A stretch of DNA of 64,000 bases, taken from Limnothrix sp. RL_2_0. Lineage in GTDB: Bacteria > Cyanobacteriota > Cyanobacteriia > Cyanobacteriales > MRBY01. Where the stretch lies: positions 12,420 to 76,419 of the forward strand of contig JAAUPR010000002.1 of NCBI GenBank assembly GCA_012033055.1, read 5' to 3'. The number at the start of each line of letters is the position of its first letter. Position 1 is the stretch's first letter. Both the position numbers and the translations under genes were made by a program. Of the stretch, positions 16,952 through 33,178 are shown in pieces. The notes under the pieces were generated by a model, which saw only the letters and a program-made list of their open reading frames with translations, was not told the origin of the DNA and did not search any database.

Positions 16952-17632
16952 TTAAGGTTGCTCTGTTTGCTTACGACGTCCTAAACCGACGAAAATACCA
17001 AACAAGCTGGGCAAAATGGCAGTGGGTGTAGGCACATCTTGAACATAGCCGTAGCGAATATTATCGATGCCTGCATATTGTAAATAGCCGCCCCCTTCTG
17101 TATCGGAAAATTCTACAGAATCAAACAAACCGTCCAAAGCGATAATACCGAAAAATCCTTTTTGATTCGCAGCGCCAAAAATTTCTGATTGGCCGTCAAT
17201 AATTAGCTCAAGGGTATCTCCTGAATTATCGGTGTTAACCCAGTCAAAGCCGATGGCACTCATGCTGGAGTAGAAATTCAGGGCTGCACTAGTGGCTGGA
17301 TTTCGGGATTGTAATTGCAGAAAATTTGTGTTGTTAATATTTCCTGTGAGTGTACCTTCAGAAATTCTCGTCCATGTCATATCTGAACGAATATTAAAAT
17401 CAGTTAAATCGTGATTTTTGTCTGTACTGGTTGCTGTTGAATTGAATGTTTCGATGTTTAATCGGGTAGTTGCTGCTTGGAAAGCGTCAATATTGGTAAA
17501 TGTTTTAAATGTTAGGGCTTGGGCTGATGGGGCAAGGCTAAGGGTTAGCAGAGAGATACTGATAAAAGAGGAGCCAATTTGGTATTTTGAAATGCCCATG
17601 GGAATAAATGAAGTGAGTTGAAGATCTCGCAT
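16952..17632 (-). CDS. secreted PEP/PTPA-CTERM-type protein
   Basis: An exported protein with a signal peptide (ISLLTLSLAPSAQA) and a C-terminal sorting signal: VPTPTAILPSLFGIFVGLGRRKQ, that is a Pro-Thr-Pro motif, a short hydrophobic helix and a basic tail. Such tails are recognised by exosortase-type enzymes for anchoring or export of surface proteins. The middle (about residues 40-200) looks like an all-beta extracellular domain and is not assigned. ATG at 17599 gives a more compact signal peptide than 17632 and may be the true start. No exosortase gene lies in the window. Confidence 0.75.
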   Translation of the reverse strand: MRDLQLTSFIPMGISKYQIGSSFISISLLTLSLAPSAQALTFKTFTNIDAFQAATTRLNIETFNSTATSTDKNHDLTDFNIRSDMTWTRISEGTLTGNINNTNFLQLQSRNPATSAALNFYSSMSAIGFDWVNTDNSGDTLELIIDGQSEIFGAANQKGFFGIIALDGLFDSVEFSDTEGGGYLQYAGIDNIRYGYVQDVPTPTAILPSLFGIFVGLGRRKQTEQP

Positions 17633-17864
17633 TATTCTACGCTGAATCTCGTAGGTCAGGAGCTATTAAATACAATCTTTATTGACGCTTTATATATTGC
17701 CAGTTTAAGTTTGTTTGATGAAGTTAGATGTGAAATGTTTTGGCGATCGCCGTCCTAAAATAATCATTTATTTTCACTGCCCCAAAGCAATAAGAAATAG
17801 AACTTACGGCGGGCGTAATGGCTAAAATCTGTCAGAATTAAAAAGGTCTTTTGATGGCAATGTT

Positions 17865-29471: not shown

Positions 29472-29900
29472 ATGTTTAATTCTGGGCAAAAAATAATCGG
29501 CTTGTTGTTGCTATTGGGTTGTCTGTGGCTGAATTGGACGGATGCGGCGATCGCCACCTTTGCTCCCAGCCCTGATGCTCCGGTAGTAGAATATCTCCAG
29601 TATTCAGTCCCCACCGCAGAACAAGCTTTTTTTGTTGCCCAAGAAGAAGCTATTTGGGGTCAATTTAATGCCCAGTTTCCCGGCTTTGATGGCAAAGAAA
29701 TTTGGCAAGATCCCAGCCATCCAGAACGGTTGATTGTCGTCGTGCATTGGCAAAGTCGGGGGCAAATGCAGTCTGTCCCCAAAGCGGAGATTCACGCAAC
29801 TAATCAGGCGTTTGAACAGGCTCTCGGTAAAACCTATCCACTGACAATCCAAGAATTTTACGAGTTGTCTCCTGTCCCCGCCGAGGCACTGAACAATTAA
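29472..29900 (+). CDS. TIGR03792-type exported protein
   Basis: A protein of 142 residues, preferring ATG 29472 (MFNSGQKIIGLLLLLGCLWL) over the earlier in-frame start at 29388, which lies inside the previous gene. It has an N-terminal hydrophobic segment (signal peptide or anchor) and then a domain with VEYLQYSVP, EEAIWGQFNAQFPGFDGKEIW and LIVVVHWQSRGQMQSVP. This matches my recollection of the cyanobacterial TIGR03792 family, which has the ABM-like alpha+beta barrel fold. Function unknown. Confidence 0.7.
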   Translation: MFNSGQKIIGLLLLLGCLWLNWTDAAIATFAPSPDAPVVEYLQYSVPTAEQAFFVAQEEAIWGQFNAQFPGFDGKEIWQDPSHPERLIVVVHWQSRGQMQSVPKAEIHATNQAFEQALGKTYPLTIQEFYELSPVPAEALNN

Positions 29901-30199
29901 GCGAGACTGACAAATTCCCCTTCAAAATGCTTGGCCTGCACCGGTAAAACCACATCAAAGGTTGTGCCACAATTTTGCTCAGAGACACAGGCGATCGCCC
30001 CATCGTGCCGATGAATAATTTGGCGGCAAATGGCTAAACCCAAGCCCGTACCTGGCCCTATCGATTTCGTGCTGAAGAAAGGTTCAAAGATTTTTGCCTT
30101 CGCCTCCGGCAGAATTCCTGACCCATTATCCGAGATACAAATTTTGATGTGGTCAGCATCAATAGCCGTTGTAGTCACCGTGATTTTTGGGCGATCGCC
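29897..30199 (-). pseudogene. histidine kinase, 3' fragment only (ATPase domain)
   Basis: Only the last 100 residues of a sensor histidine kinase remain. The G1 box (SDNGSGI), F box (FEPFFSTK) and G2 box (GTGLGLAI) of the HATPase domain are present; the N box, the phospho-accepting histidine and any sensor are absent. The frame is kinase-like up to GDRPKITVTTT and loses similarity exactly at the HIP1 palindrome 30190-30199. On the other side a different gene fragment begins on the opposite strand. Non-functional as it stands. Confidence 0.85.
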
Positions 30200-30385
30200 A
30201 ACACACAGGACGAGGACGGCTGGGCAAAACTAGGCTTAGTGGGTGGTCACATTAAAAACCAAGCGTCCTTTGATGCCCGTAACTATGACTATGACAAATT
30301 GAGCAGCCTCTTTGAAGCCATTGACCTATTCGAAATCAAGCGGGATAAAACGATTATTTCTGTCCGCAAAAAAAGCAAAAAATAA
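30190..30385 (+). pseudogene. NYN/LOTUS (OST-HTH) protein, 3' fragment only
   Basis: Starting at the HIP1 site the plus strand encodes AIANTQDEDGWAKLGLVGG followed by FDARNYDYDKLSSLFEAI, DLFEIKRD and a lysine-rich end. This is the C-terminal LOTUS/OST-HTH domain of NYN-nuclease proteins (consensus DGWxxLxxxGxxxxxxxPxFDxRxYGYxKLSxLxxAxxLFE). The NYN nuclease domain expected upstream is missing; the DNA there belongs to the histidine kinase fragment on the other strand. The fragment has no start site of its own and is most likely dead. Confidence 0.75.
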
Positions 30386-30599: not shown

Positions 30600-30621
30600 C
30601 TTCATCTAATCTTCATAAAAG
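30600..30621 (+). promoter_or_regulatory. direct-repeat operator A1
   Basis: CTTCAT-CTAAT-CTTCAT followed by AAAAG: two identical hexamers spaced 11 bases start to start, which puts them on the same DNA face. This is the arrangement bound by dimers of OmpR/PhoB-type response regulators. Regulator unknown. Confidence 0.55.
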
Positions 30622-30648
30622 ACCTTTGTTCCGTAGAATCCCATAGAA

Positions 30649-30670
30649 CTTCACAGAAACTTCATAAAAG
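30649..30670 (+). promoter_or_regulatory. direct-repeat operator A2
   Basis: CTTCAC-AGAAA-CTTCAT followed by AAAAG, the same motif as A1 with one change in the first hexamer, 49 bases downstream in the same orientation. Confidence 0.5.
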
Positions 30671-30764
30671 AACATTGTGTCTAAAAAATGAAAAATGGGC
30701 TGAAAGTCACGAATATCAATAACACAGGGAAAACCGCCAAAAAAGACGATGAATGTAATGTATT

Positions 30765-30787
30765 TTTTAGATGAAGCTTGCATGAAG
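30765..30787 (-). promoter_or_regulatory. direct-repeat operator A3, inverted
   Basis: Read on the minus strand: CTTCAT-GCAAG-CTTCAT followed by CTAAAAA. Two perfect hexamers with the 11-base period, pointing toward A1 and A2. Confidence 0.55.
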
Positions 30788-31063
30788 AGAATAGCTGAAA
30801 TGTCCACTCCACAAGGAACATGAAGCAATACAACTGCCATTATGAGGGTTGCAGATCTCGGTATTTAATAGATATGATTCGAGCAAAGCTAGCAAAGAAA
30901 ACGTCAATGTCTTTGCTTAAGTGTTAGTTAAGCTCAAATTATTTATGAGATAGCTAACTACCCACTAATAGCAACTGCCAGGTCGAACTCCGTTTTCACG
31001 TTGACGAAATTCATATCCAACATAAAGCCCTTAACGATAGGACAAGATTTAAGTCGAAATACA

Positions 31064-31789
31064 ATGATGAAAAAGCAACTGATATTAGGGGCGATCGCCA
31101 CATCTGTTTTAACTCTAGGAACCGCCGTAATTGCACCAAGTGCTGATGCATTCTCTTTAAGTGCGTCTTCACTAGAAACAAATGGGAATCCTGATGCAGA
31201 ATCATCTTGGTTTGACATTAGCCTAAAAACCAATGGCGATGGAACAGCAACCTTCTCCTTCGGTAACGTCATTGCGGATGGCAATGGTACGAAAATATCT
31301 ACAATTTATTTTGGAGATGATGATTATTTCTCCAGCATTTTTGACACATCCGGCACCGTAAGTTTTGACGGCTCGACTAGTCCGGGTACTAATTATTCCT
31401 TTGATTGGTCTGCAAGCGGAGGCTCACAAATTTCTAACAATAATGGTGGTGCGTGGCAAGTTGTATCCTCTGCGGATCCAAAGAATGGAAGTAACAAAAG
31501 CACGATTAATCCCGGAGATATTCTTAAAGTAACGTTTGATCTCGTGAATAGCTCTACCAGTGATGCTGATCTCCTTGCTGCTTTTGTCAGCACTCCTCAG
31601 AAGCTAGGTGTTGCTTTTCACGTTCAATCTATTGAAGCGCAGGGTTATAGTGAGTGGTATGAAGCGTTACCAATTCATAATCCTGTCAATGTTCCAACTC
31701 CCGCAGCAGTATTGCCTATTATCGGTAGCATGATTGGCGCAGCATCTCGTCGCAAGTCAGCTTCAGAAGAGTCTGAGTCCAACGCATAG
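31064..31789 (+). CDS. secreted PTPA-CTERM protein 1
   Basis: A 241-residue exported protein. Signal peptide MMKKQLILGAIATSVLTLGT with likely cleavage after PSADA. The mature part is rich in Ser, Asn, Gly and Asp, typical of an extracellular beta domain (WFDISLKTNGDGTATFSFGN). The C-terminus is VPTPAAVLPIIGSMIGA followed by ASRRK and an acidic tail, a PTPA-CTERM sorting signal. ATG 31064 is chosen because it starts the signal peptide; the longer frame from 31001 would bury it. It has its own terminator and a long upstream region with repeated operator-like sites. Confidence 0.8.
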   Translation: MMKKQLILGAIATSVLTLGTAVIAPSADAFSLSASSLETNGNPDAESSWFDISLKTNGDGTATFSFGNVIADGNGTKISTIYFGDDDYFSSIFDTSGTVSFDGSTSPGTNYSFDWSASGGSQISNNNGGAWQVVSSADPKNGSNKSTINPGDILKVTFDLVNSSTSDADLLAAFVSTPQKLGVAFHVQSIEAQGYSEWYEALPIHNPVNVPTPAAVLPIIGSMIGAASRRKSASEESESNA

Positions 31790-31910
31790 AGATCAATTTA
31801 AGTTTTTTCTAAAAAAGATTGACTACCAAAGGGAAGAGGATTTCCTTCCTAGAAACCTCAAGACGTAACTAAAATCTTGAGACAGGACAAAAGAATTCGT
31901 CGTCGAATAT

Positions 31911-31949
31911 AAACGGTTATTGGAGAGTAATTCTCTGTAGCCGTTTTTT
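31911..31949 (+). terminator. terminator after PTPA-CTERM gene 1
   Basis: AACGGTTA pairs with TAGCCGTT (one G-T pair), with an inner GAGA/TCTC extension, followed by TTTTTT. A strong intrinsic terminator about 120 bases after the stop. Confidence 0.85.
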
Positions 31950-32067
31950 ATGTGAGATATTTACGGATAGCAAATTTGCAACCAAGATTTTATTTTTGAG
32001 ATCTTATAGAAAAATCAAAATCTATCAATCAGGAATAGATACATAATTATTCTTAACACAATGTTTT

Positions 32068-32089
32068 CTTCATCTAATCTTTATAAAAA
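32068..32089 (+). promoter_or_regulatory. direct-repeat operator B1
   Basis: CTTCAT-CTAAT-CTTTAT followed by AAAAA. It differs from A1 by one base in the second hexamer, and even the CTAAT spacer is the same. Confidence 0.55.
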
Positions 32090-32211
32090 TGTATTTTGGA
32101 TTGTAACTGGGGAAATAGTTAAGTGAATTGGGCAAAGACATGGAGTTGCCAAAGTGATTGAGCTTCAAGGTTTTCAATCTGTACCAGCAAAAACTTTTAT
32201 AATGAACACTT

Positions 32212-32234
32212 TTTTTGATGAAGATTGCGTAAAG
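32212..32234 (-). promoter_or_regulatory. direct-repeat operator B2, inverted
   Basis: Minus strand: CTTTAC-GCAAT-CTTCAT followed by CAAAAAAA. Counterpart of A3, including the GCAA start of the spacer. Confidence 0.5.
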
Positions 32235-32523: not shown

Positions 32524-33178
32524 ATGAAAAATCAACTTTTGTTAGGGGCGATCGCCGTTAGCGTTTTCAGCGCAGCATTAGGCTTGGGTAAAGCTCAGGC
32601 GTTCAATCTCACTGAATGTGCCGCCAATACTGCTGTAACAGGCGCGCTTGGTTGTCAATATGTGACCGATCCATATATCAGCACAAGGTAATGACGATAC
32701 TACTGCTGTCGGTACAGAGGTTTCTGATGGTCCTCCTGGATCTATCAAAATCAATGTCAACAACTTGAATGTTGCAGGTGAGGATGATGGAGTAGCGGAA
32801 GGCTTTTTTGGAAAAACAGATTGGGATTTTATTTCCAAGTTTGATCCAGTCGCAGAATCTGGTGACCAAGCAGCTCCTACTGGTGGTTACAACGAGATTC
32901 TTGCAATCTTTAAGGGTGGTGCAAACACAACTCTAGTTGGATATTTGTTAGATGGAACAAATATTGACTGGGAGAACCCTTGGCTATCTGGAGATATCCC
33001 TGGTGCAACCGGAGGTTCTTTGTGCAGTACTGGTTGTGGAATCTCTCATATTTCGTTTTATGGTCGGACTGGTAGTACTCCTCCTCCCGTTCCTACTCCT
33101 GCGGCAGTTCTTCCTATTCTCGGCGGTCTTTTCGGTGCAGCTTCTCGTCGTAAGAAAGGCGAATCTACTGAAGCATAA
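32524..33178 (+). pseudogene. secreted PTPA-CTERM protein 2, frameshifted
   Basis: Relative of the preceding CTERM gene. The signal peptide (MKNQLLLGAIAVSVFSAALG...AQA) and first 50 residues are in one frame, which stops at 32689-32691. From about 32678 another frame continues as ISAQGNDDTTAVGTEVSDG and so on to PPPVPTPAAVLPILGGLFGA then ASRRKKGE. The change needed is +2 (or -1) and fits loss of one AT unit in ATATAT (32673-32678). The intact protein would be about 218 residues. The C-terminal sorting signal is nearly identical to that of protein 1, the middle domain is not. Confidence 0.7.

What the first reader, a model, noticed from the sequence alone, without database searches (positions are those of the whole stretch)
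30600..32234. Five 11-bp-period direct repeats upstream of two PTPA-CTERM genes: a candidate undescribed regulon
The sequence shows CTTCAT-N5-CTTCAT (hexamers CTTCAT, CTTCAC, CTTTAT or CTTTAC) followed by an A-rich tail at 30600, 30649 and 30765 (minus) before PTPA-CTERM gene 1, and at 32068 and 32212 (minus) before gene 2. In both places forward site(s) and an inverted site are about 145-165 bases apart and lie 230-465 bases before the start codon. Hexamers spaced by 11 bases on one DNA face are the known layout of OmpR/PhoB-class response regulator sites (PmrA and Pho boxes). Preservation of the sites while the rest of the upstream DNA diverged suggests selection. The facing orientation and long distance suggest looping or a divergent, possibly non-coding, transcript.
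Basis: partly seen in the sequence, partly recalled or inferred. Interest (0 to 1): 0.72.

Follow-up and report, generated by a model that had tools for sequence, protein, structure and literature searches.

The report
DNA switch motif for exosortase-sorted surface proteins
A short paired DNA word, CTTCAT repeated once per helical turn, sits in front of many genes for exported surface proteins in a small group of cyanobacteria, and in front of the enzyme operon predicted to anchor those proteins, so these genes are probably switched together by one still unidentified regulator.

Summary
All five CTTYAY-N5-CTTYAY sites are present (0.17 expected per 64 kb). In 38 other PTPA-CTERM upstream regions from three related genomes, the pair occurs 11 times at exactly an 11-bp period and never at any other spacing from 0 to 14 (shuffles: mean 0.125, at most 1). 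Allowing one mismatch gives 30 sites in 22 of 38 genes (shuffles 2.8). The refined motif CTTYAYNNAANCTTYAYNNAA occurs 39 times against 3 reversed controls in the three genomes that have exosortases, but 9 against 5 in three close relatives that lack them.

The motif also heads the operon glycosyltransferase - PTPA-CTERM - HpsJ-C - cyanoexosortase C in all three genomes. There four hexamers are conserved through C/T changes while most flanking DNA has diverged.

Best explanation: a transcription-factor operator, probably of an OmpR/PhoB-type response regulator, that co-regulates cyanoexosortase C, part of its presumed substrates and other surface genes. The regulator is not identified. Canonical Pho boxes lie at pstS in the same genus, which argues against SphR. 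The only OmpR-type regulator confined to the exosortase genomes lacks the motif at its own promoter. No expression or binding data exist. Looping and a divergent transcript are not needed.

The parts
30600..30616 (+). Operator pair 1, CTTCATCTAATCTTCAT, distal site of PTPA-CTERM gene 1
   Evidence: perfect match to the refined motif
30649..30665 (+). Operator pair 2, CTTCACAGAAACTTCAT
   Evidence: perfect match to the refined motif
30771..30787 (-). Operator pair 3, CTTCATGCAAGCTTCAT, inverted, proximal site of gene 1
   Evidence: perfect match to the refined motif
31064..31789 (+). PTPA-CTERM gene 1 (241 aa); ortholog in G004 at 53% identity, also with sites upstream
   Evidence: NF033465 28.2 bits, just below the 29-bit cut-off, 31.8 bits over the cut-off
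32068..32084 (+). Operator pair 4, CTTCATCTAATCTTTAT, distal site of gene 2
   Evidence: perfect match to the refined motif
32218..32234 (-). Operator pair 5, CTTTACGCAATCTTCAT, inverted, proximal site of gene 2; shared with G004:830598
32524..33178 (+). PTPA-CTERM gene 2, reading frame broken by a shift near 32690
17677..17693 (+). Sixth site, CTTTATTGACGCTTTAT, inverted relative to the third PTPA-CTERM gene; kept at -92 to -94 in G004 and (one mismatch) G005
16952..17632 (-). Third PTPA-CTERM gene of the window

Best explanation
The repeats are operators of one sequence-specific transcription factor, most likely an OmpR/PhoB-type winged-helix response regulator. Two subunits would bind head-to-tail to hexamers one helical turn apart on the same face of the DNA (consensus CTTYAYNNAANCTTYAYNNAA, sometimes three or four hexamers). 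It coordinates the cyanoexosortase C operon (glycosyltransferase - PTPA-CTERM - HpsJ-C - exosortase), a large part of the PTPA-CTERM genes, and probably other surface or polysaccharide genes, so that the sorting enzyme and its presumed cargo are made together when the cell builds its extracellular matrix. At the exosortase operon four hexamers lie upstream of a conserved extended -10-like element (TTG[C/T]TAGACT), which suggests activation from upstream. Shown: the motif, its spacing specificity, its location and its conservation. Inferred: the protein class, activation, that PTPA-CTERM proteins are cargo of cyanoexosortase C, and the physiological role. Unknown: which regulator, and the signal.
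For: Spacing specificity in 38 independent upstream regions (11 at N5, 0 at other spacings 0-14; 30 sites in 22 genes with one mismatch, shuffles 2.8). Unbiased hexamer-pair test peaks at distance 11 with CTTCAT on top. Flanking A positions not used in the search repeat with the same period. Location enrichment in three genomes. Refined motif 39 v 3 in exosortase-bearing genomes, 9 v 5 in relatives without. Footprints at orthologs. Exosortase typed as cyanoexosortase C.
Against: No binding, expression or TSS data. No regulator gene carries a zero-mismatch site. 16 of 38 other PTPA-CTERM genes have no site even with one mismatch. Orientation and distance vary, which a simple activator would not predict. 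The refined motif's flank was read from the same sites, so its genome-wide enrichment is partly circular. Non-CTERM targets were listed, not tested statistically. Only three genomes carry the system, and orthologous sites are not independent.
Confidence: 0.72

Rival explanations
1. The sites are Pho boxes: SphR, the cyanobacterial PhoB, controls these genes under phosphate starvation.
For: The SphR box is also a tandem repeat of 11-bp period starting with CTT (CTTAACCT, PMC1906773).
Against: Hexamer differs (CTTCAY against CTTAAC). In the same genus canonical boxes of the (Y)TTAACCT type lie upstream of pstS in G002, G003 and G004, so SphR keeps its usual sequence; no phosphate gene appears among the CTTCAY sites apart from an overlap with the pstS Pho box itself.
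Confidence: 0.06
2. The binder is the CopR/CzcR-like two-component pair (G000:C72, G004:1148571, G005:C5) found only in the three exosortase-bearing genomes, possibly metal-responsive.
For: Exact phylogenetic profile among OmpR-type regulators; TIGR01387/TIGR01386-like, below cut-offs; Synechocystis CopR box is TTCATN4-5TTCAT (PMC4182526), the same TTCAT core.
Against: Its own divergent promoter has a different conserved repeat (ATTACAGAT) and no CTTYAY pair; the CopR period is 9-10 bp, not 11; sites at polysaccharide and secreted-protein genes in G001-G003, which lack this regulator, would need another binder if real.
Confidence: 0.15
3. The element works in the RNA: facing CTTCAT and ATGAAG blocks pair in a long leader and control translation or stability.
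For: In gene 1 and gene 2 the forward and inverted sites face each other and are partly complementary.
Against: Most sites have no facing partner; the repeat finder reports no inverted repeat within either leader; no known RNA family matches; strict 11-bp phasing and both orientations fit DNA binding.
Confidence: 0.05
4. The five sites are leftovers of a duplicated or mobile sequence and the match elsewhere is chance.
For: Gene 1 and gene 2 are tandem relatives, so their five sites are not independent.
Against: The motif occurs at unrelated genes and at 22 of 38 other PTPA-CTERM genes with no shared flanks; hexamers keep C/T alternatives across genomes while surroundings diverge.
Confidence: 0.02

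Closest known systems
PrsK/PrsR and sigma-54 (RpoN) control of PEP-CTERM genes in Proteobacteria (PMC9850573)
   Same: Genes of an exosortase sorting system share an upstream regulatory element; coupled to polysaccharide and aggregation
   Different: That system is a Fis-type regulator acting at sigma-54 promoters; here the element is an 11-bp-period direct repeat, and cyanobacteria are known (general knowledge, not tested) to lack sigma-54
Nostoc punctiforme cyanoexosortase B locus and PEP-CTERM genes under SigJ (PMC12188702)
   Same: A cyanobacterial exosortase expressed together with several PEP-CTERM genes; the paper reports that those genes lack a J-Box and infers indirect control by SigJ
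   Different: Cyanoexosortase B, not C; control traced to a sigma factor; no operator motif described in the passages read
SphR/PhoB Pho box (PMC1906773)
   Same: Tandem direct repeats of 11-bp period beginning CTT, A/T-rich linkers
   Different: CTTAACCT octamer, phosphate genes; canonical boxes coexist with this motif in the genus
Synechocystis CopR box TTCATN4-5TTCAT (PMC4182526)
   Same: Direct repeat with a TTCAT core bound by an OmpR-type regulator
   Different: Period 9-10 bp instead of 11; copper-resistance genes

Membership tests
OmpR/PhoB-type direct-repeat operator | Two or more head-to-tail hexamers at an 11-bp period | tested here: met
   Only N5 is enriched; triples at C160, G004 and G003
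OmpR/PhoB-type direct-repeat operator | Bound by a winged-helix response regulator | not testable with these tools
   11-12 candidates per CTERM genome, none linked by a perfect site at its own gene
SphR Pho box | CTTAACCT-like octamers upstream of phosphate genes | tested here: not met
   Hexamer and targets differ; canonical boxes lie at pstS
CopR box | TTCAT-N4/5-TTCAT | tested here: not met
   Spacing is TTYAY-N6-TTYAY (N5 between hexamers); spacing N4 gives 0 strict sites
Cyanoexosortase C / PTPA-CTERM system | Exosortase of the CrtC family with HpsJ-like C partner and PTPA-CTERM proteins in the same genome | tested here: met
   NF033464 361.8 bits (cut-off 225), NF050019 183.3 (cut-off 140) in G004; PTPA-CTERM genes in the same genomes and operon
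PrsK/PrsR-sigma-54 PEP-CTERM regulon | Sigma-54 promoters and a PrsR regulator | not tested
   Not searched; cyanobacteria are generally held to lack sigma-54

The most novel reading that the evidence does not exclude
A dedicated, undescribed matrix-building regulon in which one response regulator turns on cyanoexosortase C, its PTPA-CTERM cargo, adhesin-like giant proteins and polysaccharide export together: a cyanobacterial counterpart of the proteobacterial PEP-CTERM regulon, built on a different transcription mechanism.
Probability: 0.45. Interest if true: 0.68.

Novelty: new member of a known kind. Interest (0 to 1): 0.56.

Why it matters
No paper in the searched library uses the term PTPA-CTERM, and how cyanobacteria control their exosortase-sorted proteins is open: in Nostoc the PEP-CTERM genes are inferred to be only indirectly controlled by SigJ (PMC12188702). 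A clean operator that marks both the sorting enzyme and its presumed cargo gives a short list of targets and a bait for finding the regulator. It also offers a handle on what those unstudied surface proteins are for (biofilm, sheath or aggregation).

Tried and rejected
SphR Pho box: rejected on hexamer, targets and coexistence with canonical boxes. Autoregulation of an OmpR-type regulator as a clue: no zero-mismatch site found. CopR-like regulator by phylogenetic profile: attractive, weakened by its own promoter. RNA hairpin or known ncRNA: no support. Sigma70-like promoters: one overlaps site 1, but the region's total is not above shuffles. Wider conservation: no clear motif at PTPA-CTERM genes of the distant genome G156 or the exosortase locus of G047, nor at cyanoexosortase C loci of other cyanobacteria, although CCP2 keeps the operon order; so the motif is genus-level as far as seen. 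Whole-genome counts of the loose pattern are uninformative. Literature searches for a described motif gave nothing.

Full report
Observation. All five CTTYAY-N5-CTTYAY sites are at the stated places, with 0.17 expected in 64 kb. The two upstream regions share the motif and the first codons but little else. The tail rule needs correction: the A-rich positions are +17 to +20, and +8/+9 in the spacer, so the repeat unit is CTTYAYNNAAN.

Is it tied to PTPA-CTERM genes? Over the family cut-off, G000 (the window's genome) has 10 such genes, G004 has 22 and G005 has 8; the three further genomes of the genus have none. I took up to 700 bp upstream of these 40 genes. Start codons were my own choice (first in-frame start, adjusted by eye to the signal peptide), which blurs distances but not the spacing test. 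Leaving out gene 1 and gene 2, the strict pair occurs 11 times at spacing 5 and not once at any other spacing from 0 to 14. Dinucleotide shuffles give 0.125 on average and never more than 1. With one mismatch allowed there are 30 sites in 22 of 38 genes, against 1 to 9 sites at other spacings and 2.8 in shuffles. Without presupposing the motif, identical hexamer pairs are commonest at distance 11, and the top hexamer is CTTCAT. By location, 5 of 17 further G000 sites, 8 of 22 in G004 and 2 of 5 in G005 fall in PTPA-CTERM or exosortase-operon upstream DNA, with 0.026, 0.069 and 0.009 expected.

Whole-genome test. The loose pattern is not clearly above its control. The refined motif CTTYAYNNAANCTTYAYNNAA with up to one mismatch occurs 16, 14 and 9 times in G000, G004 and G005 against 1, 1 and 1 for the reversed pattern, and 3, 2 and 4 times against 0, 1 and 4 in G002, G003 and G001. 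All seven perfect matches in G000 lie upstream of PTPA-CTERM genes or the exosortase operon. Part of this is circular because the flank was read from these sites. The comparison between genomes with and without the exosortase is less so, but modest (P 0.018).

The exosortase link. Exosortases occur only in G000, G004 and G005. One of the two in each lies in an operon glycosyltransferase - PTPA-CTERM - HpsJ-like - exosortase, the same order in all three. In G004 the exosortase is cyanoexosortase C (E 2.6e-108) and its neighbour HpsJ_like_C (E 3.7e-54). Upstream of this operon all three genomes carry two N5 pairs about 30 bp apart, with C and T exchanged inside the hexamers and most of the flanks diverged; the last hexamer ends in CTTTAA in two of them. 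A conserved TTG(C/T)TAGACT follows about 43 bp later and about 80 bp before the start codon. This looks like an extended -10 and suggests an upstream-bound activator; that is an inference. That PTPA-CTERM proteins are the cargo of this exosortase is inferred from co-occurrence and operon structure.

More footprints. A triple hexamer is kept between the C160 gene and its G004 ortholog. A site at -92 to -94 is kept in three genomes at the window's third PTPA-CTERM gene and its orthologs, with one mismatch in G005. Gene 2 and G004:830598 share the inverted site. Outside PTPA-CTERM, sites recur at an inositol-phosphatase-family gene (G000, G004), DUF11 surface proteins (G000, G004), a single-domain response regulator (G004, G005), a polysaccharide-export gene (G002, G003), and large secreted or autotransporter-like proteins. 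These are fewer and were not tested statistically.

Mechanism. Exact 11-bp head-to-tail phasing with A-rich linkers is the layout of PhoB-class sites; assigning the binder to that class is my inference, not a result.

Which regulator? G000 has 11, G004 11 and G005 12 OmpR-type regulators. None of those examined has a zero-mismatch site at its own gene. SphR is unlikely, since canonical Pho boxes lie at pstS in the same genus. One CopR/CzcR-like pair follows the exosortase distribution exactly, and CopR's published box has a TTCAT core, but its own promoter carries another conserved repeat. Others are RpaB, an RpaB paralog, an RppA-type, an NblR-like and unassigned ones. I cannot choose.

Breadth. 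PTPA-CTERM genes over the cut-off were seen only in this genus among 149 genomes of the order, and in one further genome in an overlapping sample of 194 across the phylum. No clear motif was found at those distant genes or at cyanoexosortase C loci elsewhere.

Verdict. A real operator and regulon, undescribed in the searched literature; ordinary in kind, interesting in its targets.

Noticed in passing
window 32524-33178: PTPA-CTERM gene 2 reads MKNQLLLGAIAVSV...DPYISTR then a stop; the protein continues in another frame (QGNDDTTAV...VPTPAAVLP). Either a decayed gene or an error in the draft assembly.
   Followed up: partly
window 29897-30384: The C-terminal end of a histidine kinase (minus strand, 29897-30178) abuts the C-terminal end of an unrelated protein (plus strand, to 30384, ending ...DLFEIKRDKTIISVRKKSKK): two truncated genes meet just upstream of the regulatory region, suggesting a rearrangement.
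   Followed up: no
L144 (G000:C27:35506-35538) and L247 (G005:C21): Hexamers at 11-bp steps precede a 78-aa protein ending IPTPGALLAVVTMGGAAIRKK next to a large repeat-rich surface-like protein; a similar large protein in G005 also has a site (690 bp upstream). Possibly a short CTERM variant missed by the PTPA-CTERM model.
   Followed up: no
L127 4919-4946 (G003): A triple hexamer CTTCATGGTTTCTTCATATAAGCTTTAT precedes, inverted at -154, a protein with collagen-type repeats in a genome without exosortase, hinting that the regulator predates or outlives the sorting system.
   Followed up: no
L313 (filamentous cyanobacterium CCP2): Apparently the same operon order (glycosyltransferase - CTERM proteins - HpsJ-like - cyanoexosortase C relative, 54% identity) with two CTERM genes and no clear CTTYAY motif.
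   Followed up: no
L217/L120 (G005:C56:12220) and L134 (G004:2828575): A single-domain response regulator gene has a conserved site upstream in two genomes (CTTCACCAACTCTTCATAAAA / CTTTACCAACTCTTCACAAAA), in G005 divergent from gyrA; a possible feedback component.
   Followed up: no
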